64,000 nucleotides of DNA, taken from NCBI RefSeq assembly GCF_000718135.1, contig NZ_JOEM01000016.1, positions 124,001 through 188,000 of the forward strand. The letters run 5' to 3'. Below are positions 12,321 through 33,380 of the stretch, in pieces (within the stretch, counting starts at the first letter, position 1; every line of letters starts with the position of its first letter). The notes under the pieces are model-generated. The model had not been told where the DNA came from and did not search any database. It saw only the letters and a list, made by a program, of their open reading frames with translations. The stretch comes from Streptomyces cyaneofuscatus (lineage in GTDB: Bacteria; Actinomycetota; Actinomycetes; Streptomycetales; Streptomycetaceae). Position numbers and translations under genes: made by a program.

Positions 12321-13472
12321 ATGAACCTGGAGCTCAGCCAGGAGCAGGAAGCCGTCCGGCGGCTGGCCGAGGAGTTCGTGGCCCGTGAGGTCACGCCACA
12401 CGTCGTCGCGTGGGACCGGGCCGAGAATGTCGACAGGCCGATCGTGAAGAAGCTCGGCGCGCTCGGCTTCCTCGGCCTGACCGTCCCCGAGGAGTACGGC
12501 GGCTCCGGCGGCGACCACCTCACGTACTGCCTGGTCACCGAGGAGCTCGGCCGAGGCGACTCCTCCGTGCGCGGGATCGTCTCCGTCTCGCTCGGCCTGG
12601 TCGCCAAGACCATCGCGTCCTGGGGCGACGAGGAGCAGAAGCGGCAGTGGCTGCCCCGGCTCACCTCCGGCGAGGCGATCGGCTGCTTCGGCCTCACCGA
12701 GCCCGGCACCGGCTCGGACGCCGGGAACCTCGCCACCCGGGCCGTGCGCGACGGCGGTGACTACGTCATCAACGGCACCAAGATGTTCATCACCAACGGC
12801 ACCTGGGCCGACGTGGTGCTGCTCTTCGCCCGCACCGACGACGCCCCCGGCCACCGCGGTGTCTCCGCCTTCCTCGTCCCCGCCGACACCCCCGGCCTCA
12901 CCCGTCGCACCATCCACGGCAAGCTCGGCCTCCGCGGCCAGGCCACCGCCGAACTGGTCCTGGAGGACGTCCGGGTCCCCGCCGCCACCCTCCTCGGCCC
13001 CGAGGGCAAGGGCTTCACCGTCGCCATGTCGGCCCTCGCCAAGGGCAGGATGTCCGTCGCGGCGGGCTGCGTCGGCATCGCCCAGGCCGCCCTGGACGCC
13101 TCCGTGCGGTACGCCGGTGAGCGCGAGCAGTTCGGAAAGGGCATCGCCGGCCACCAGCTCGTCCAGGAGCTGCTCAGCGACATCTCCGTGGACGTCGAGG
13201 CGGCCCGGATGCTCACCTGGCGGGTCGCCGACCTCGTCGACCGGGGCCAGGAGTTCGCCACCGCCGCCTCCCAGGCCAAGCTGTACGCCTCCGAGGCCGC
13301 CGTCCGCTGCGCCAACAACGCCATCCAGGTCTTCGGCGGCTACGGCTACATCGACGAGTACCCGGTCGGCAAGCTGCTCCGCGACGCCCGCGTGATGACG
13401 CTCTACGAGGGCACCAGCCAGATCCAGAAGCTCATCATCGGCCGCGCGCTGACGGGCGTCTCCGCGTTCTGA
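12321..13472 (+). CDS. Acyl-CoA dehydrogenase
   Basis: 383 residues, the normal length of the FAD-dependent family that introduces the alpha-beta double bond in acyl-CoA. Visible marks are the flavin/substrate segment CFGLTEPGTGSDAG, the FITNGTWADV stretch, GKGFTVAMSALAKGR, the YAGEREQFGKGI region and the catalytic glutamate E363 in LYEGTSQIQKLIIGR. The start ATG at 12321 follows GAGAAGGTGGGTGG. It is transcribed divergently from tetR and shares an operator with it. The chain-length or branched-chain preference cannot be decided by eye; an isovaleryl- or short-chain-like role is plausible given the aldehyde dehydrogenase genes apparently under the same control. Confidence 0.93.
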   Translation: MNLELSQEQEAVRRLAEEFVAREVTPHVVAWDRAENVDRPIVKKLGALGFLGLTVPEEYGGSGGDHLTYCLVTEELGRGDSSVRGIVSVSLGLVAKTIASWGDEEQKRQWLPRLTSGEAIGCFGLTEPGTGSDAGNLATRAVRDGGDYVINGTKMFITNGTWADVVLLFARTDDAPGHRGVSAFLVPADTPGLTRRTIHGKLGLRGQATAELVLEDVRVPAATLLGPEGKGFTVAMSALAKGRMSVAAGCVGIAQAALDASVRYAGEREQFGKGIAGHQLVQELLSDISVDVEAARMLTWRVADLVDRGQEFATAASQAKLYASEAAVRCANNAIQVFGGYGYIDEYPVGKLLRDARVMTLYEGTSQIQKLIIGRALTGVSAF

Positions 13473-13570
13473 CCGCCGTCAGCCGCCGCCCCGGCTCGTA
13501 CGCGTGTCTGAGTAGCTCGCTGAGTACGGGCACGGATGTGGCGCACGCCACGTCGGCGGATGCTGAGCCC

Positions 13571-13861
13571 ATGAGTGACACGACATCGGTCAAGCAGCAG
13601 AGCACCGCCGCCTTCTACGGCCAGGCCGTCGCCTCCTTCCTGGTGGCGATGGGCGCGGTGGCCCTCGGTATCTTCTTCCTCGACGCCGACGCCTGGGTGC
13701 GCGGCTTCCTCGCCATCGGGGTGCTCTACCTCGTGACGTCCTGCTTCACGCTGGCCAAGGTGATCCGGGACCGGCAGGAGGCCGGGCAGATCGTCAGCCG
13801 GGTCGACCAGGCCCGGCTGGAGAAGATCCTCGCCGAGCACGACCCCTTCCAGAAGCTCTGA
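13571..13861 (+). CDS. YiaA/YiaB-like two-helix inner membrane protein
   Basis: A 96-residue protein with two membrane segments: AFYGQAVASFLVAMGAVALGIFFL (about 13-36) and a second at about 43-61. The arrangement, with DADAWVRGF between the helices and a charged tail ending in HDPFQKL, matches the YiaA/B two-helix domain family, whose function is unknown. The ATG at 13571 is preferred over an upstream GTG because the extra residues are unlike the family N-terminus. It lies between the acyl-CoA dehydrogenase and a second tetR gene, with nothing to tie it to either. Confidence 0.7.
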   Translation: MSDTTSVKQQSTAAFYGQAVASFLVAMGAVALGIFFLDADAWVRGFLAIGVLYLVTSCFTLAKVIRDRQEAGQIVSRVDQARLEKILAEHDPFQKL

Positions 13862-13906
13862 CCCTTCCCGAGACCGTGAACCCGCACACCCGCCCCTGAG
13901 ACGCCC

Positions 13907-13922
13907 CTAAGCGCTTGCTCAG
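13907..13922. promoter_or_regulatory. Putative TetR operator, 16-mer identical to that at 21947 (set B)
   Basis: CTAAGCGCTTGCTCAG ends 48 bp before the tetR start at 13970. The core AAGCGCTT is a perfect palindrome. The same 16 bases occur at 21947-21962, 48 bp upstream of the MaoC gene. AGCAAGCGCTT half-sites are typical of TetR-type regulators of acyl-CoA metabolism in actinobacteria. Confidence 0.7.
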
Positions 13923-13969
13923 GTTCGGGGTATGGTGTTCGTCCTGTTGACGGAGAGGGGCCCTGGACG

Positions 13970-14599
13970 ATGAGTACGGCGGAGGAGACGAGCGGCGACG
14001 ACGCTCCCTGGGGCGAGGTCACGCCCGAGGCGGCCAGGCGGCTGCTCGTCGCCGCGGTCGACGCCTTCGCCGAGCGCGGGTACCACGCGACCACCACCCG
14101 CGACATCGCCGGCCGGGCCGGGATGAGCCCGGCCGCGCTCTACATCCACTACAAGACGAAGGAAGAGCTGCTCCACCGGATCAGCAAGATCGGCCACGAC
14201 CGGGCGCTGTACGTCCTGGAGGCCGAGGCCGACCGGGACGGCACCGCCGCCGACCGGCTCGCCGGGGCCGTACGGTCCTTCGTCCGCTGGCACGCCGAGC
14301 GCCACACCACCGCACGCGTCGTCCAGTACGAGCTCGACGCCCTCGGCCCCGAGCACCGCACCGAGATCGTCGAGCTGCGCCGCAGGAGCGACGCGGTGGT
14401 GCGCCGGATCATCAGCGAGGGGGTGGCGGCGGGCGAGTTCGACGTCCCCGACATCCCCGGCACCACCCTCGCCGTGCTGTCCCTCTGCATCGACGTGGCC
14501 CGCTGGTTCAACGCACAGGGCAGCCGCACGCCCGACGAGGTCGGCGCGCTCTACGCCGGCCTCGTCCTGCGGATGGTCGGAGCCCCGCCTCAGCCCTGA
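13970..14599 (+). CDS. TetR/AcrR family transcriptional regulator (set B)
   Basis: 209 residues. The helix-turn-helix lies at about residues 25-70: AARRLLVAAVDAFAERGYHATTTRDIAGRAGMSPAALYIHY. The C-terminal half contains a helical ligand pocket of the type seen in regulators of acyl-CoA metabolism. The start ATG at 13970 follows GGAGAGGGGCCCTGGACG. An operator-like 16-mer 48 bp upstream, repeated exactly before the MaoC-type dehydratase gene at 21899, indicates self-regulation and control of that distant gene. It is followed 43 bp later by the AmiC-like protein gene on the same strand; cotranscription is possible. Ligand unknown. Confidence 0.88.
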   Translation: MSTAEETSGDDAPWGEVTPEAARRLLVAAVDAFAERGYHATTTRDIAGRAGMSPAALYIHYKTKEELLHRISKIGHDRALYVLEAEADRDGTAADRLAGAVRSFVRWHAERHTTARVVQYELDALGPEHRTEIVELRRRSDAVVRRIISEGVAAGEFDVPDIPGTTLAVLSLCIDVARWFNAQGSRTPDEVGALYAGLVLRMVGAPPQP

Positions 14600-26027: not shown

Positions 26028-26181
26028 TCCGCTACCTCCATGATCGCGCCGACTGTCATGGCCACGCACGCTAGCGCGGGTACGGGCCCCACGGAACGAC
26101 CCGGGCCGCGCCGATTCCCCCAGCCGGACCGCCGCCCCCGCCGACCTGGCCCGGGCCCCTTCCCGACCCTTCCCCGATCAC

Positions 26182-26199
26182 ATACCGACCGGTTAGTCT
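26182..26199. promoter_or_regulatory. Putative TetR operator before the SDR-ligase operon (set C)
   Basis: ATACCGACCGGTTAGTCT is an imperfect inverted repeat (ACCGAC/GTTAGT) lying 28 bp before the SDR start codon. It agrees at 13 of 18 bases with the reverse complement of the site at 33280-33297 in front of the kinase-acyl-CoA dehydrogenase operon. A TetR gene closes the SDR-ligase cluster. Confidence 0.5.
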
Positions 26200-26226
26200 G
26201 CCGGTGCAGACGGACCGAGAGGCGGG

Positions 26227-27000
26227 ATGACGATGGATACGGTGCAGGACGCCGGCGTGGTGGTCACGGGAGCCGGAGGCGGCATCGGCGCCGCTCTGGC
26301 CCGCAGGTTCGCCGAGCAGGGCGCGCGGGTCGTCGTCAACGACCTCGACCTCGCGCGCATCGAGCCGCTCGCGAAGGAGATCGGCGGCACCGCCGTCGCC
26401 GGGGACGCCTCGGGCATCGTGGAGGCGGCCCGGGACGCGCTGGGCGGCACGGTGGACGTCTACTGCGCCAACGCCGGACTCGCCTCGCCCGGTGACGCGT
26501 TCGCCGACGAGGAGGTCTGGGCCGCCGCCTGGGACGTCAACGTGATGGCCCACGTGCGGGCGGCCAGGGCCCTGCTGCCGCAGTGGCTGGAGCGCGGCAG
26601 CGGGCGGTTCGTCACCACCGCCTCCGCCGCCGGACTGCTGACGATGATCGGCGCGGCCCCCTACAGCGTCACCAAGCACGGGGCGGTCGCCTTCGCCGAG
26701 TGGCTCTCGCTCACCTACCGCCACCGCGGCATCAAGGTTCACGCCATCTGCCCGCAGGGCGTACGGACGGACATGCTCACCGCCGCCGGTTCGGCCGGCG
26801 AGCTGGTGCTCGCCCCTGGGGCGATCGAGCCGGCCGCCGTCGCCGACGCGCTGTTCGACGCGATGGCGACCGACCGCTTCCTGGTCCTGCCGCACCCGGA
26901 GGTCGCCGGCTACTACCAGGCGCGCGCAGCCGATCCCGACCGGTGGATCGGCAACATGAACCGACTCCAGCAGAAGTGGGAGGGGGTGAGCGGCGCATGA
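26227..27000 (+). CDS. Short-chain dehydrogenase/reductase (SDR)
   Basis: 257 residues, classical SDR: cofactor motif TGAGGGIG (14-21), D39-D41 after beta-2 (VVVNDLDL, pointing to NAD rather than NADP), NAG at 82-84, and the catalytic set S133, Y146, K150 (YSVTK). The starts ATG at 26227 or 26233 are both possible. It overlaps the acyl-CoA ligase gene by 4 bp (ATGA), so the two form an operon. It could serve as a 3-hydroxyacyl dehydrogenase or alcohol dehydrogenase in fatty- or hydroxy-acid breakdown; the family name does not fix the substrate. Confidence 0.9.
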   Translation: MTMDTVQDAGVVVTGAGGGIGAALARRFAEQGARVVVNDLDLARIEPLAKEIGGTAVAGDASGIVEAARDALGGTVDVYCANAGLASPGDAFADEEVWAAAWDVNVMAHVRAARALLPQWLERGSGRFVTTASAAGLLTMIGAAPYSVTKHGAVAFAEWLSLTYRHRGIKVHAICPQGVRTDMLTAAGSAGELVLAPGAIEPAAVADALFDAMATDRFLVLPHPEVAGYYQARAADPDRWIGNMNRLQQKWEGVSGA

Positions 27001-28685
27001 GCGACGCACGCTCCGGCTCCGGCTCCCGCTACGCCGCCAAGCCCTGGCTCGCCCTCCTCAGCGACGCTCAGCGCGCCGAAGTGCACCCCGCCGAGACCGT
27101 GCTCCACGCCTTCCGGGACACGGTCGCCCGGGCCCCCGAGGACCACCCCGCCCTCGCCTACTTCGACGGGCGCCTGACCTACCGAGAGACCGACACGCTC
27201 TCCGACTCGGTGGCCGGACACCTCGCCGCCCGGGGCCTGCGGCGCGGCGACCGGGTCGCGATCATGCTCCAGAACAGCCCGCACTTCGTCCTCGCGCTCC
27301 TCGGCGCGTGGAAGGCCGGAGCCACCGTCGTACCGCTCAATCCGATGTACAAGTCCGGCGAGGTCGGGCACGTGCTGAAGGACGCCGGGGTCACCGCGCT
27401 GATCTGCTCGGACCGGGCCTGGGCGGCGTATCTGCGGGAGACCGCCGAGGCCGCCCCGGACCTCACCATCGCGCTGACCGCCTGCGAGCTGGACCTCCAG
27501 AGCGCGGACGACCCCCGTGTCCTCGGCTTCGAGCGGCTCCCCGCCCCCGGCCCCGACGACCTCGCCGACGACCTGCTCACCGTGGCCCGCGCCGGCCACA
27601 CGCCCCCGGACGGCCGGGAGCTCACCGCCGCCGACGTGGCGCTGATCAGCTACACCTCCGGGACCAGCGGCACCCCCAAGGGCGCCATGAACTCCCACGC
27701 CAACATCATGGTGAACGCCGAGCGGCAGCGCACCGGGCACCCCGTCGCCGAGGGCTCCGCCTACTTCGCGCTCGCCCCGCTCTTCCACATCACCGGCATG
27801 GTCTGCCAGCTCGCCGCCTGTATCGCCAACGCGGGCACCCTGGTCCTGGCCTACCGCTTCGAGGCGGGCGTCGTCCTCGACGCCTTCGCCGCCCACCGCC
27901 CCGCGTACACTGTCGGCCCCTCCACCGCCTTCATGGCCCTGGCCGCCCACCCGGACGTCACCCCGGACCACTTCGCCTCCTTCCAGGTGATCTCCTCCGG
28001 CGGCGCCCCGCTGCCGCCCGCCCTGGTGGAGAAGTTCCGCGCCGGCTTCGGCCCGTACATCCGCAACGGCTACGGACTCACCGAGTGCACCGCCCCCTGC
28101 GCCTCGGTCCCGCCCGAGCGTGAGGCCCCGGTGGACCCGGTCTCCGGCACGCTCTCCGTCGGCGTGCCCGGCCCCGACACCGTCGTACGGATCCTCGACG
28201 AGAGCGGGCAGGAGGTGCCCTTCGGGGAGCAGGGCGAGATCGCGGTGCGCGGTCCCCAGGTCGTCTCCGGCTACTGGAACCTCCCCGAGGCCACCGAGGC
28301 CGCCTTCCCGGACGGCGAGCTGCGCACCGGTGACATCGGGTTCATGGACGCGGCGGGCTGGCTCTACGTCGTCGACCGCAAGAAGGACATGATCAACGCC
28401 TCGGGGTTCAAGGTCTGGCCCCGCGAGGTGGAGGACGTCCTGTACACCCACCCGGCGGTGCGCGAGGCGGCCGTCGTGGGCGTGCCCGACGCGTACCGGG
28501 GGGAGACCGTACGCGCCTATGTCAGTCTGCGTCCGGGCACAACCGTCGAACCGGGCGAGCTGGGGACGTACTGCAAGGAAAGGCTCGCCGCGTACAAGTA
28601 TCCGCGCGAGGTGGAGATCCTGGCCGAGCTGCCGAAGACGGCGAGTGGGAAGATCCTCAGGCGGGAACTGCGTTCCTCCCGTTAG
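26997..28685 (+). CDS. Acyl-CoA synthetase (AMP-forming ligase)
   Basis: 562 residues of the ANL superfamily. The ATP loop is SYTSGTSGTPKGA (218-230), the adenine-binding stretch is YIRNGYGLTECTAPCA, the hinge region GELRTGDIGFMDAAGWLYVVDRKKDMI carries the conserved D and R, and the C-terminal catalytic lysine is K552 in KTASGKILRREL. It activates a carboxylic acid as acyl-AMP and transfers it to CoA. The ATG at 26997 overlaps the SDR stop. A tetR gene follows 49 bp downstream on the same strand. An operator-like site before the SDR suggests joint regulation. Confidence 0.93.
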   Translation: MSDARSGSGSRYAAKPWLALLSDAQRAEVHPAETVLHAFRDTVARAPEDHPALAYFDGRLTYRETDTLSDSVAGHLAARGLRRGDRVAIMLQNSPHFVLALLGAWKAGATVVPLNPMYKSGEVGHVLKDAGVTALICSDRAWAAYLRETAEAAPDLTIALTACELDLQSADDPRVLGFERLPAPGPDDLADDLLTVARAGHTPPDGRELTAADVALISYTSGTSGTPKGAMNSHANIMVNAERQRTGHPVAEGSAYFALAPLFHITGMVCQLAACIANAGTLVLAYRFEAGVVLDAFAAHRPAYTVGPSTAFMALAAHPDVTPDHFASFQVISSGGAPLPPALVEKFRAGFGPYIRNGYGLTECTAPCASVPPEREAPVDPVSGTLSVGVPGPDTVVRILDESGQEVPFGEQGEIAVRGPQVVSGYWNLPEATEAAFPDGELRTGDIGFMDAAGWLYVVDRKKDMINASGFKVWPREVEDVLYTHPAVREAAVVGVPDAYRGETVRAYVSLRPGTTVEPGELGTYCKERLAAYKYPREVEILAELPKTASGKILRRELRSSR

Positions 28686-28734
28686 AACCTCGTCGAAACA
28701 GCGAACGCACGGTATGAAAGGCAGGTGGCGGCTC

Positions 28735-29328
28735 ATGGCCAAGGCGACGGAGCAGAACGGCACGCCCGTCCCTCAGAGGCTGCTGGCCGCCGCCACCCGG
28801 CTCTTCGCCGAGCGCGGGTACGACCGCACCTCGGTGCAGGAGATCGTCGAGGCGGCGGGCGTCACCAAGGGGGCGCTCTACCACTACTTCGGCTCCAAGG
28901 AGGACCTTCTCCAGGAGGTCTACGCCCGGGTGCTGCGGCTCCAGCAGGAGCGGCTGGACGCCTTCGCGGGGGCCGACGCCCCCGTCGAGCAGCGGCTGCG
29001 TGACGCGGCCGCCGACGTGGTCGTCACGACCATCGACAACCTGGACGACGCCGCGATCTTCTTCCGCTCCATGCACCACCTGAGCCCGGAGAAGAACAAG
29101 CAGGTGCGGGTGGAGCGCCGCCGCTACCACGAGCGGTTCCGGGCGCTGATCGAGGAGGGCCAGCGCAGCGGGGTGTTCTCCACCGCCACCCCCGCCGACC
29201 TGGTGGTCGACTACCACTTCGGCTCGGTCCACCACCTCTCCACCTGGTACCGCCCGGACGGCCCGCTCAGCCGCGAGCAGGTCGCCGGCCACCTCGCGGA
29301 TCTGCTGCTGCGGGCCCTGCGCCCGTAA
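28735..29328 (+). CDS. TetR family transcriptional regulator (set C)
   Basis: 197 residues. The N-terminal helix-turn-helix reads QRLLAAATRLFAERGYDRTSVQEIVEAAGVTKGALYHYFGSKEDLL, a clear TetR type, and the C-terminal domain includes FFRSMHHLSPEKNKQVRVERRRYHERF, as in regulators of fatty acid degradation. The ATG at 28735 has AGGTGG upstream; an in-frame ATG at 28714 lacks a ribosome site. It follows the ligase gene closely, so it probably controls its own operon and, through the matching operator at 33280, the kinase-acyl-CoA dehydrogenase operon. An acyl-CoA effector is the likely ligand (inference). Confidence 0.87.
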   Translation: MAKATEQNGTPVPQRLLAAATRLFAERGYDRTSVQEIVEAAGVTKGALYHYFGSKEDLLQEVYARVLRLQQERLDAFAGADAPVEQRLRDAAADVVVTTIDNLDDAAIFFRSMHHLSPEKNKQVRVERRRYHERFRALIEEGQRSGVFSTATPADLVVDYHFGSVHHLSTWYRPDGPLSREQVAGHLADLLLRALRP

Positions 29329-29408
29329 CACCGCCCTGTTCGACTCCGCCCTGATCAGAGCCGGTTGAACACGTCCAAACGCCGATATGTGTTCGTTAAT
29401 GGAACTGA

Positions 29409-30926
<1,518 letters not shown>

Positions 30927-30943
30927 CCTCCCGGCACTCCCGC

Positions 30944-30972
30944 TGCGGCCCCCTCCCCAGGAGGGGGCCGCA
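30944..30972. terminator. Bidirectional terminator hairpin
   Basis: TGCGGCCCCCTC (30944-30955) pairs perfectly with GAGGGGGCCGCA (30961-30972) around a 5-base loop, a 12-bp stem between the convergent aminopeptidase and acyl-CoA dehydrogenase genes. Confidence 0.75.
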
Positions 30973-30979
30973 CACGGTT

Positions 30980-32194
30980 TCACAGGTAGCGCTTGATCTC
31001 CCGCCGGGCCAGCGACCGCTGGTGCACCTCGTCCGGCCCGTCCGCCAGCCGCAGCGTCCGCGCCGACGCCCACAGCTCCGCCAGCGGGAAGTCCTGGCTC
31101 ACCCCGCCCGCCCCGTGCAGCTGCACCGCGGAGTCCAGGATGTCCACCACCGCGCGCGGGGTGGCGATCTTGATGGCCTGGATCTCGGTGTGCGCGCCCT
31201 TGTTGCCCACCGTGTCCATCAGCCAGGCCGTCTTCAGCACCAGCAGCCGCAGCTGCTCCACCGTCACCCGGGCGTCCGCGATCCAGTTCTGCACGACGCC
31301 CTGCTGGGCGAGCGGCTTGCCGAACGCCGTACGTTCCACCGCCCGGCGGCACATCAGCTCGATGGCCCGCTCCGCCATCCCGATCAGCCGCATGCAGTGG
31401 TGGATCCGCCCCGGTCCCAGCCGCGCCTGCGCGATGGCGAAACCGCCGCCCTCCTCACCGATCAGGTTCGACGCGGGCACCCGTACGTCGTGGAAGACCA
31501 CCTCGGCGTGGCCGCCGTGGGAGTGGTCCTCGTACCCGTACACCTGCATGGCGCGCCGCACTTCGAGGCCGGGGGTGTCGCGCGGCACCAGGATCATCGA
31601 CTGCTGGCGGCGGAGGTCATCGCCGTCCGGGTCGGTCTTGCCCATCACGATGAAGATCGCGCAGTCCGGGTTCATCGCCCCGGAGATGTACCACTTGCGG
31701 CCGTTGATGACGTACGAGTCACCGTCCCGCACGATCCGGGTCTCGATGTTCGTCGCGTCGGAGGACGCCACATCCGGCTCCGTCATCGCGAAAGCGGAGC
31801 GGATCTCCCCGGCCAGCAGCGGCTCCAGCCACTGCTTCTTCTGTTCGTCGGTGGCGAACTGGAAGAGCACCTCCATGTTCCCGGTGTCCGGCGCCGCGCA
31901 GTTCAGCGCGGTCGGCGCGAGGTGCGGGGAGCGGCCGGTGATCTCCGCGAGCGGCGCGTACTGGAGGTTCGTCAGCCCGGCCCCGTACTCCGCGTCGGGC
32001 AGGAAGAGGTTCCACAACCCCTGCCGCCGCGCCTCCGCCTTCAGCTCACCGACCACGGCCGGGGTGTCCCACGGCGAGGCGAGCAGCGCCCGCTGCTCGT
32101 GGTCGGTCCGCTCGGCCGGGTAGACGTAGTCGTCCATGAAGGCGAGCAGCCTGCTCCGCAGCTCCTCGGTACGGGCGTCGAATGCGAAGTCCAT
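30980..32194 (-). CDS. Acyl-CoA dehydrogenase, ACAD10/ACAD11-like
   Basis: 404 residues of the acyl-CoA dehydrogenase family. Visible marks: AFAMTEPDVASSDATNIETRI, YVINGRKWYISGAMNPDCAIFIVMGKTDP, GYEDHSHGGHAEVVFHDVRVP and RLGPGRIHHCMRLIGMAERAIELM, which match the subgroup that works with an aminoglycoside-phosphotransferase-like kinase. The C-terminal segment QLHGAGGVSQDFPLAELWASARTLRLADGPDEVH carries the usual end of the fold. It is 6 bp downstream of the kinase gene on the same strand. In ACAD10/11 and in the Pseudomonas Lva system this pair turns 4-hydroxyacyl-CoA into the enoyl-CoA through a 4-phosphoacyl intermediate. Confidence 0.9.
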   Translation of the reverse strand: MDFAFDARTEELRSRLLAFMDDYVYPAERTDHEQRALLASPWDTPAVVGELKAEARRQGLWNLFLPDAEYGAGLTNLQYAPLAEITGRSPHLAPTALNCAAPDTGNMEVLFQFATDEQKKQWLEPLLAGEIRSAFAMTEPDVASSDATNIETRIVRDGDSYVINGRKWYISGAMNPDCAIFIVMGKTDPDGDDLRRQQSMILVPRDTPGLEVRRAMQVYGYEDHSHGGHAEVVFHDVRVPASNLIGEEGGGFAIAQARLGPGRIHHCMRLIGMAERAIELMCRRAVERTAFGKPLAQQGVVQNWIADARVTVEQLRLLVLKTAWLMDTVGNKGAHTEIQAIKIATPRAVVDILDSAVQLHGAGGVSQDFPLAELWASARTLRLADGPDEVHQRSLARREIKRYL

Positions 32195-32200
32195 GGGTGG

Positions 32201-33223
32201 TCAGCCTTCCTGGAGAGTGGTGAGGCCGTGCTCGATGAAGACCGGGACCAGATCGCCGATCTGATCGAAGCCCGCGCCGACGGTCTGGCCGAGGGTGTAG
32301 CGGTAGTGGATGCCCTCCAGGATCACGGCGAGCTTGAACCAGGCGAACGCGGTGTACCAGGAGATGGCGGAGGTGTCCCGGCCCGACCCGGCGGCGTACC
32401 GCTCGATCAGCTCGGCGGGGGAGGGGTGCCCGGCGGCGCCGCTGGTGGTGGAGACGGGGGAGTGCGGCAGATCGAGGTCGGAGCTGTACATCACGAGGAG
32501 CCCGAGGTCGGTCAGCGGATCGCCCAGGGTGGACATCTCCCAGTCCAGGACGGCGTTGATGCGGTCGTCCGGGCCGAGCAGCACGTTGTCCAGGCGGTAA
32601 TCGCCGTGGACGACGGTGGGCGCGGGGGAGGCGGGCAGCTCACGGCCCAGCGAGGCGTGCAGCTCGTCGATGCCGGCCAGGTCGCGGTTGCGGGAGGCGT
32701 CCAGCTGCTTGCCCCAGCGCCGCAACTGCCGGTCCAGGAACCCCTCCGGCCGCCCGAAGTCCCCGAGCCCCACCGCTTCCGGGTCCACCGCGTGCAGGTC
32801 GACCAGCGTGTCGACGAGGGCGAGGACGGCGGCCCGGGTGCGCTCGGGGCCCAGCGGGGCGAGCTGTTCGGCGGTGCGGTACGGGGTGCCCTCGACGTGC
32901 TCCATGACGTAGAAGGGCGCCCCGAGCACCGAGTCGTCCTCACAGAGGAGCACCGGCTCCGGCACCGGGACGGCGGTGGGGTACAGGGCGCTGATCACCC
33001 GGTGCTCGCGCTTCATGTCGTGCGCGGTGGCCAGCACATGGCCCAGCGGCGGTCTGCGCACCACCCAGCGGCCGGTCCCGTCGGTGACGGTGTACGTCAG
33101 GTTCGAGCGGCCGCCCTCGATGAGCCGCGCTTCGAGGGGTCCGCTCACCAGCCCCGGCCGCTCGCGGTCGAGATGGCCGCGCAGCAGCTCCGGGTCGAGA
33201 CCTGGCGGGGGGACTGAGCTCAT
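32201..33223 (-). CDS. Aminoglycoside-phosphotransferase-fold kinase, putative 4-hydroxyacyl-CoA kinase
   Basis: 340 residues with the APH/choline kinase fold. The catalytic loop is VVHGDYRLDNVLL (HGDxxxxN) and the metal-binding motif is VLDWEMSTLGDPLTDLGLL (the DWE of this subfamily). The N-lobe has NLTYTVTDGTGRWVVRRPPLG. Proteins of this type that stand next to an ACAD10/11-like dehydrogenase phosphorylate the 4-hydroxyl of 4-hydroxyacyl-CoA (ACAD10/11 N-terminal domain; LvaA). Start ATG at 33223. The upstream region holds a doubled 15-mer and an ATGCCGAC-type operator related to the one before the SDR-ligase operon. Not an antibiotic-resistance kinase on this context. Confidence 0.85.
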   Translation of the reverse strand: MSSVPPPGLDPELLRGHLDRERPGLVSGPLEARLIEGGRSNLTYTVTDGTGRWVVRRPPLGHVLATAHDMKREHRVISALYPTAVPVPEPVLLCEDDSVLGAPFYVMEHVEGTPYRTAEQLAPLGPERTRAAVLALVDTLVDLHAVDPEAVGLGDFGRPEGFLDRQLRRWGKQLDASRNRDLAGIDELHASLGRELPASPAPTVVHGDYRLDNVLLGPDDRINAVLDWEMSTLGDPLTDLGLLVMYSSDLDLPHSPVSTTSGAAGHPSPAELIERYAAGSGRDTSAISWYTAFAWFKLAVILEGIHYRYTLGQTVGAGFDQIGDLVPVFIEHGLTTLQEG

Positions 33224-33244
33224 GGTGCGTACCTCCGGGGCGAC

Positions 33245-33275
33245 GGAACGATCGCTGACGGGAACGATCGCTGAC
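33245..33275. repeat. Direct repeat of 15 bp upstream of the kinase gene
   Basis: GGAACGATCGCTGAC occurs at 33245-33259 and again at 33261-33275, one base apart, each with a CGATCG palindrome. It lies between the kinase start (33223) and the operator at 33280. It may be a regulator binding site or a small duplication. Confidence 0.6.
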
Positions 33276-33279
33276 CATG

Positions 33280-33297
33280 ATGCCGACCAGTCGGTAT
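33280..33297. promoter_or_regulatory. Putative TetR operator before the kinase-acyl-CoA dehydrogenase operon (set C)
   Basis: ATGCCGACCAGTCGGTAT has matching arms CCGAC/GTCGG and outer AT/AT pairs, an 18-bp near-palindrome. It is 57 bp upstream of the kinase start and 83 bp upstream of the divergent glucarate dehydratase gene. Its reverse complement matches the site at 26182-26199 at 13 of 18 bases. Confidence 0.55.
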
Positions 33298-33380
33298 GTC
33301 GTCCAGTGAACTCCCGCAATCCACCACGGGAACCGCGTCCCACCCCTGTAACGGATCGCATATATGAATACATTTCACGG

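What the first reader, a model, noticed from the sequence alone, without database searches (positions are those of the whole stretch)
26182..33297. Split regulon for 4-hydroxy acid breakdown: SDR-ligase-TetR cluster and kinase-ACAD operon share an operator
Seen: ATACCGACCGGTTAGTCT (26182-26199) and the reverse complement of 33280-33297 (ATACCGACTGGTCGGCAT) agree at 13 of 18 bases; one precedes the SDR-acyl-CoA ligase operon followed by a tetR, the other the APH-kinase/acyl-CoA dehydrogenase operon. Known: ACAD10/11 and Pseudomonas LvaA/LvaC phosphorylate a 4-hydroxyacyl-CoA and then remove the phosphate to give enoyl-CoA. Inference: ligase, kinase, dehydrogenase and SDR form one pathway under the TetR at 28735, feeding beta-oxidation.
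Basis: partly seen in the sequence, partly recalled or inferred. Interest (0 to 1): 0.72.

Follow-up and report, generated by a model that had tools for sequence, protein, structure and literature searches.

The report
Shared switch for 4-hydroxy-acid breakdown genes
Two gene groups in a soil bacterium, predicted to break down 4-hydroxy fatty acids in the way human ACAD10 and ACAD11 do, carry the same DNA switch for one repressor, and a similar repressor-switch-enzyme set occurs in some distant bacteria, which makes this little-studied pathway easy to test.

Summary
The two 18-mers are the only matches (up to 3 mismatches) to the palindrome ATACCGACCGGTCGGTAT in the window; none arose in 100 shuffles. 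In 80 Streptomyces loci fetched by the TetR, the site lies upstream of the kinase in 75 of the 75 loci that hold it, and upstream of the SDR in 76 of 78 with upstream DNA.

The dehydrogenase is of the ACAD11 type with the catalytic Asp; the kinase matches the ACAD11 kinase domain. The TetR's best solved relative is Thermus PfmR, whose measured sites are TACCGACCGGTCGG-like and whose own operon holds SDRs, an AMP-binding protein, a related dehydrogenase and a kinase. Five outgroup actinobacterial loci have SDR-kinase-ACAD as one gene run with the operator.

Corrections: the ligase is accessory (no match in 28 of 80 loci); the M28 peptidase is a bystander. Binding, effector and substrate remain inferred; some related modules use other regulators.

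Verdict: a real, conserved actinobacterial variant of the Lva/ACAD10-11 pathway under a PfmR-type repressor.

The parts
26182..26199 (+). operator 1 (ATACCGACCGGTTAGTCT), before the SDR-ligase-TetR operon
   Evidence: conserved in 76 of 78 Streptomyces loci with upstream DNA
33280..33297 (-). operator 2 (ATACCGACTGGTCGGCAT on the minus strand), before the kinase-ACAD operon
   Evidence: conserved in 75 of 75 loci with the kinase
26170..26175 (+). putative -35 element TTCCCC of the SDR promoter
   Evidence: conserved columns, read by eye; not mapped
26194..26199 (+). putative -10 element TAGTCT of the SDR promoter, inside the right half of operator 1, 18 bp from the -35
   Evidence: conserved columns, read by eye; not mapped
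33300..33305 (-). putative -35 element TGGACG of the kinase promoter
   Evidence: conserved CTGGACG, read by eye; not mapped
33277..33282 (-). putative -10 element CATCAT of the kinase promoter, 17 bp from the -35
   Evidence: partly conserved columns, read by eye; weak; not mapped
26227..27000 (+). SDR oxidoreductase (257 aa)
   Evidence: PF00106; orthologue in 140 of 150 Streptomyces genomes
26997..28685 (+). acyl-CoA ligase (562 aa), accessory member
   Evidence: PF00501; no match in 28 of 80 loci
28735..29328 (+). TetR-family repressor of PfmR type (197 aa)
   Evidence: PF00440 and PF17932; best solved relative 3vpr; 35% identical to T. thermophilus PfmR
30980..32194 (-). ACAD10/11-LvaC-type acyl-CoA dehydrogenase (404 aa), catalytic Asp in LADGPDEVH
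   Evidence: ACAD11 8v3u E 2.7e-138
32201..33223 (-). APH-fold kinase of ACAD11/LvaA type (340 aa), motif HGDYRLDN
   Evidence: PF01636; ACAD11 kinase domain E about 1e-50
29589..30926 (+). M28 peptidase gene lying between the two operons; bystander, not part of the regulon
   Evidence: found in only 12 of 80 loci

Best explanation
A split regulon for 4-hydroxyacyl-CoA breakdown. The PfmR-type TetR at 28735 binds as a dimer to ATACCGACCGGTCGGTAT-like operators placed between (and partly over) the -35 and -10 elements of two promoters, blocks RNA polymerase at both, and represses itself because its gene ends the SDR operon. When an acyl-CoA of the pathway builds up, the TetR lets go. The ligase, or another ligase of the cell, activates the acid; the kinase phosphorylates the 4-hydroxyl of the 4-hydroxyacyl-CoA; the ACAD11-type dehydrogenase eliminates the phosphate to give a 2-enoyl-CoA for beta-oxidation. 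The SDR either makes the 4-hydroxyacyl-CoA from a 4-oxoacyl-CoA (LvaD role) or oxidises a (3R)-hydroxyacyl-CoA downstream. Shown here: operator identity and conservation, gene linkage, family membership, catalytic residues, kinship with PfmR. Inferred: binding, repression, effector, substrate, the SDR's step.
For: Operators at both promoters conserved in 75 of 75 and 76 of 78 loci and lying in conserved promoter-like frames. TetR best solved relative 3vpr has the sequence of Thermus PfmR, which binds CCTACCGACCGGTCGG at 0.3 nM (PMC7022988); in its deletion strain the operon's phosphotransferase TTHB014 (logFC 1.86, adj. p 0.021) and ACAD TTHB015 (logFC 1.68, adj. p 0.020) rise. 16 outgroup TetR loci: 22 sites at 3 mismatches or fewer in 260 kb against 0.025 in shuffles; kinase or this ACAD in 13 of 16; five with SDR-kinase-ACAD in one run. 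Nine of ten SDR-less Streptomyces genomes also lack the kinase orthologue. ACAD11-type dehydrogenase with the Asp; kinase.
Against: No binding, expression or enzyme data exist for these proteins. The ligase has no match in 28 of 80 loci. Three genomes keep the TetR without either operon or a nearby operator. One locus (L091) keeps SDR-ligase-TetR without the kinase within 10 kb, and G018 keeps kinase, ACAD, TetR and both sites without the SDR. Nine other sites in the genome are unexplained. Kinase-ACAD modules occur with other regulators or none nearby and no such operator, and a second TetR-kinase-ACAD group in G097 has no recognisable site. The Thermus kinase is only 28% identical.
Confidence: 0.75

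Rival explanations
1. Same regulon and same enzyme families, but the natural substrate is not a simple 4-hydroxy acid: the kinase and dehydrogenase remove a hydroxyl from another position, or from a branched or cyclic side chain, during lipid breakdown.
For: Some outgroup operons carry one or two further, ordinary acyl-CoA dehydrogenases beside the module; Thermus PfmR is described as a fatty acid and phenylacetate regulator (the latter partly recalled).
Against: The ACAD11 and LvaA/LvaC relatives act on 4-hydroxyacyl-CoAs (PMC11342911, PMC12440821), and the ACAD is far closer to ACAD11 than to ordinary ACADs of the PDB.
Confidence: 0.15
2. SDR-ligase and kinase-ACAD are two separate fatty-acid pathways that merely share a repressor.
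For: They are separate transcription units in Streptomyces, and the SDR operon can occur without the kinase (L091) and the kinase without the SDR (G018).
Against: Five outgroup loci have SDR-kinase-ACAD in one gene run; Thermus, Deinococcus and Cytobacillus also group SDRs, ACAD and kinase; nine of ten SDR losses go with kinase loss, though kinship of the genomes is not corrected for.
Confidence: 0.07
3. Another TetR, for example the one at 13970-14599, binds the operators.
For: A TetR about 29-31% identical to the 28735 TetR lies roughly 1.5-10 kb from it in several Streptomyces genomes.
Against: The same search found no second TetR in the 16 outgroup loci, most of which keep operators beside the PfmR-type TetR; the PfmR relationship and PfmR's measured sites point to the 28735 TetR.
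Confidence: 0.03

Closest known systems
PfmR (TTHB023) regulon of Thermus thermophilus HB8
   Same: TetR with the same class of operator; own operon with SDRs, AMP-binding protein, ACAD with the Asp (YDGPSEVH) and phosphotransferase.
   Different: One long operon with MaoC, thioesterase, DUF6285 and histidine phosphatase; proteins 28-41% identical; described as a fatty acid regulator, with no 4-hydroxy-acid role in the passages I saw.
lva operon of Pseudomonas putida (LvaA, LvaB, LvaC, LvaD, LvaE, regulator LvaR)
   Same: Same set of roles: kinase, ACAD, SDR, CoA ligase, with a dispensable ligase (PMC6692424, passages).
   Different: Single operon with a sigma54-type regulator and the small LvaB; here split in two with a TetR and no LvaB gene between kinase and ACAD. 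LvaD and LvaE sequences were not compared.
ACAD10/ACAD11 of animals
   Same: Kinase plus ACAD of the same types; catalytic Asp.
   Different: Fused in one chain; here two proteins under bacterial transcriptional control.

Membership tests
ACAD10/11-LvaC type acyl-CoA dehydrogenase | closer to ACAD11 than to ordinary ACADs, with Asp as catalytic base | tested here: met
   8v3u E 2.7e-138 against 2e-43 for the best ordinary ACAD; LADGPDEVH aligned to ACAD11, where the mutant chain 8v3v has Asn at that Asp
ACAD10/11-LvaA type kinase | APH-fold kinase related to the ACAD11 kinase domain, catalytic Asp and Asn five residues on | tested here: met
   8v3v E 1.2e-50; HGDYRLDN in the query, compared with D220/N225 named in PMC12440821
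4-hydroxyacyl-CoA pathway (Lva/ACAD10-11) | phosphorylation of the 4-hydroxyl and elimination of the phosphate to a 2-enoyl-CoA | not testable with these tools
   needs enzyme assay
lva operon | LvaB small protein and LvaR sigma54-type regulator | tested here: not met
   only 6 bp between kinase and ACAD genes and the linked regulator is a TetR; LvaB was not searched genome-wide; an lvaB-less lva cluster exists in P. citronellolis
PfmR-type TetR regulator | sequence kinship with PfmR | tested here: met
   best of 196 matched PDB sequences is 3vpr, E 5e-25, whose printed residues agree with TTH_RS10115; 35% identity
PfmR-type TetR regulator | TACCGACCGGTCGG-like operator at its target promoters | tested here: met
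PfmR-type TetR regulator | protein binds the operator and represses | not testable with these tools
   needs EMSA and transcript data

The most novel reading that the evidence does not exclude
The PfmR-type TetR and its TACCGACCGGTCGGTA operator form an old, cross-phylum sensor pair (Actinomycetota, Deinococcota, Bacillota) dedicated to the 4-hydroxyacyl-CoA kinase / phosphate-eliminating dehydrogenase module. Thermus PfmR, described so far as a phenylacetate and fatty acid regulator, is then really a 4-hydroxy-acid regulator, and its effector is an intermediate of that module.
Probability: 0.45. Interest if true: 0.7.

Novelty: new variant of a known kind. Interest (0 to 1): 0.55.

Why it matters
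The ACAD10/11 reaction was assigned in mammals only in 2024-2025 (PMC11342911, PMC12440821), and the bacterial side is known mainly from Pseudomonas. A regulon found in most Streptomyces genomes, with a named repressor candidate and a defined operator, gives a genetic handle on where 4-hydroxy acids and gamma-lactones come from in soil, could serve as a biosensor for them, and suggests a function for the Thermus PfmR regulon. The listings of eight paper searches (at most 20 titles each) showed no paper on this actinobacterial regulon; papers beyond those listings and most subscription journals were not seen.

Tried and rejected
M28 peptidase: rejected as a member, present in 12 of 80 loci.

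Divergent neighbours namZ and the enolase-superfamily gene: rejected as main targets. They share intergenic DNA with the sites, but the enolase gene is found in only 23 of 80 loci while the kinase site is in all 75, and G093 keeps namZ beside the TetR without SDR or operator. Co-regulation of them is not excluded.

Wider regulon: some of the nine other palindromic sites recur by sequence in relatives (for example TTACCGACTGGTCGGTAC or a one-base variant in 7 of 10 genomes; flanks not compared), but the neighbouring genes (GNAT acetyltransferase, HTH_67 protein and GlxA-like regulator, S15 peptidase, DUF5949, a molybdopterin-oxidoreductase-like gene beside another TetR) show no tie to the pathway. 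They may belong to other TetRs; left open.

A second TetR-kinase-ACAD group in G097 gave no recognisable operator. Tsukamurella and Rhodococcus erythropolis plasmid modules have a different TetR (30% and 28%) and no such operator. Deinococcus deserti has the enzymes with no TetR listed nearby and no site. The Cupriavidus pHG1 ACAD has no module around it. Sphingobium has 3-hydroxyacyl-CoA dehydrogenase-ACAD-kinase with no TetR listed in 18 kb. So the module is not always tied to this regulator.

PMC3511530 (TetR context): nothing on this locus in the passages searched. Not run: structure prediction, fold search, homologous-protein search, RNA-family search.
Full report
What is there. The window is high-GC Streptomyces-like DNA (GC 0.67-0.78 in 2-kb steps); its TetR is 99% identical to that of Streptomyces sp. 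CB00316. On the plus strand lie an SDR (26227-27000), an acyl-CoA ligase (26997-28685) and a TetR (28735-29328). On the minus strand lie an APH-fold kinase (33223-32201) and an acyl-CoA dehydrogenase (32194-30980). An M28 peptidase gene lies between the two groups.

The two sites. Both 18-mers are as described and agree at 13 of 18 bases. They are imperfect copies of the palindrome ATACCGACCGGTCGGTAT with 3 and 2 mismatches; no other place in the window comes within 3, and 0 of 100 shuffles had any. The own genome has 11 palindromic places at 3 mismatches or fewer against 1 for the control. Ten other Streptomyces genomes have 3-11 against 0-1. The six genomes without a close TetR orthologue have 0-3 against 0-2.

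Conservation. Gene order is SDR-(ligase)-TetR facing ACAD-kinase in 75; four of the other five end within 3 kb of the TetR and one (L091) lacks the kinase within 10 kb. All 75 kinases have the operator upstream: 18 with 1 mismatch, 34 with 2, 22 with 3, 1 with 4. Of 78 loci with DNA upstream of the SDR, 76 have it (75, L097); L091 has a 6-mismatch version and L027 none. The loci are all Streptomyces and not independent.

Promoter anatomy. 75 distinct sequences aligned at each site show islands of conservation. At the SDR: a CCCTTCC-like stretch, then ACATACCGACYGGTTAGTCTG. The right half departs from the palindrome in the same way in nearly all of them and reads TAGTCT, a plausible -10 element. 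At the kinase: CTGGACG, then ACATACCGACYGGTCGG, followed in the window by CATCAT. I read these as -35 and -10 elements with the operator in between, so that a bound dimer would block RNA polymerase. This is a reading of conserved columns, not a mapped promoter.

The regulator. The TetR (TetR_C_24) has 3vpr as best solved relative. The 3vpr residues printed there agree with TTH_RS10115 of T. thermophilus HB8, whose two upstream sites lie where PMC7022988 tabulates those of TTHB023/PfmR. PfmR binds CCTACCGACCGGTCGG with KD 0.3 nM and TTTACCGACCGGTTGG with KD 1 nM (passages). Its operon holds two ACADs, two SDRs, a MaoC protein, a thioesterase, an AMP-binding protein and a phosphotransferase, followed by DUF6285 and a histidine phosphatase. 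In the deletion strain the operon's second ACAD and the phosphotransferase rise (logFC 1.68 and 1.86, adjusted p about 0.02), while the other genes between them and pfmR do not reach 0.05. Identity to the window proteins is modest: TetR 35%, ACAD 41%, kinase 28%, SDRs about 30%.

Outgroups. Of 148 genomes of the class, 26 have the TetR at E up to 1e-35; 15 are outside the genus, with 16 places. All 16 were fetched. Ten have the kinase, 12 the ACAD, 13 either; L233, L238 and L239 have neither. The 260,285 bases hold 22 sites at 3 mismatches or fewer, against a mean of 0.025 (largest 1) in 40 shuffles. In L229, L230, L234, L236 and L237 SDR, kinase and ACAD form one gene run; L236 adds a thiolase and a FabG-like SDR. 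In Bacillota, Cytobacillus spongiae has SDR, ACAD, TetR, thioesterase, kinase, FabG and two MaoC genes, with ACATACCAACCGGTTAGTATC before the SDR.

Loss together. In 150 Streptomyces genomes the TetR orthologue (E up to 1e-60) is in 144 and the SDR in 140. Nine of the ten SDR-less genomes also lack a close kinase; two of these nine have a more distant kinase (G078 at 52% identity in a 78%-complete genome, G120 at E 1.7e-59), which I did not count as the orthologue. G041 (138-residue match) and G043 (60% match) keep ACAD, SDR and TetR and were counted as present. G018 lacks only the SDR and still has a site before its TetR. Three of the nine (G035, G051, G093) keep an orphan TetR with no operator at 4 mismatches or fewer in about 20 kb; why is unexplained. 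The Fisher value takes no account of kinship.

The chemistry. The ACAD is far closer to ACAD11 than to ordinary ACADs in the PDB and has its catalytic Asp. The kinase matches the ACAD11 kinase domain and shows the Asp and Asn spacing named in PMC12440821. ACAD10/11 phosphorylate the 4-hydroxyl of 4-hydroxyacyl-CoAs and eliminate the phosphate, as LvaA and LvaC do (PMC11342911, PMC12440821, passages). The step is well founded by family; the chain length and source of the acid are unknown. A Tsukamurella plasmid operon with a different TetR joins thiolase, SDRs, MaoC, kinase, this ACAD (74%), two more ACADs, a phosphotriesterase-family protein related to 4if2 and 2vc5, and a ligase. Such proteins are often lactonases (recalled), which would fit gamma-lactones as a source.

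The ligase is not a fixed member: 28 of 80 loci have no ligase match and 78-233 bp between SDR and TetR; one of the other 52 has a 281-bp gap, so its ligase match lies elsewhere. P. putida lvaE is likewise dispensable (PMC6692424, passages). The SDR could be the 4-oxoacyl-CoA reductase (LvaD role) or act on a (3R)-hydroxyacyl-CoA, the name of its best solved relative (E 6.9e-34). There is no LvaB between kinase and ACAD and no LvaR beside them, so this is not an lva operon.

Verdict. Observation confirmed; interpretation supported with corrections; new variant of a known kind. The boldest reading is that PfmR-type TetRs are dedicated regulators of this module in three phyla. Modules with other regulators show that the reverse does not hold.

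Noticed in passing
G000:C16:123158-123175 (about 0.8 kb left of the window start), L014:6159: A 2-mismatch copy of the operator lies downstream of another TetR gene and upstream of a molybdopterin-oxidoreductase-like gene; similar sequences recur in several relatives.
   Followed up: partly
L187, L188, L189 (genomes G035, G051, G093): The TetR persists at 80-83% identity with the HTH nearly unchanged although both operons and nearby operators are gone; its present targets are unknown.
   Followed up: partly
L250 (Streptomyces cathayae linear plasmid NZ_CP121683.1): A plasmid copy of kinase, ACAD and SDR with both operators, near IS3-family transposase genes; the TetR matches in two pieces and is not annotated.
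   Followed up: partly
L248 (Tsukamurella tyrosinosolvens plasmid NZ_LR134470.1): A long operon joins the kinase-ACAD pair with thiolase, MaoC, SDRs, a phosphotriesterase-family protein and a ligase, under a different TetR; suggests lactones as a source.
   Followed up: partly
L194 (genome G097, C1:1043000-1060000): A second ACAD-kinase-SDR-TetR group (kinase 58%, TetR 57%) without a recognisable copy of this operator.
   Followed up: partly
L019:5585 (G000:C20:58584-58601): Palindromic site between an HTH_67 protein gene and a GlxA-like regulator gene; the same or a one-base-different sequence is found in 7 of 10 other Streptomyces genomes.
   Followed up: partly
window 12321-14599: Another acyl-CoA dehydrogenase gene with a TetR gene (13970-14599) nearby; a TetR of this kind lies near the regulon in several related genomes.
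   Followed up: partly
window 33240-33279: A 16-bp tandem duplication between operator 2 and the kinase start, absent from the close relative L021 judging by the shorter distance.
   Followed up: no
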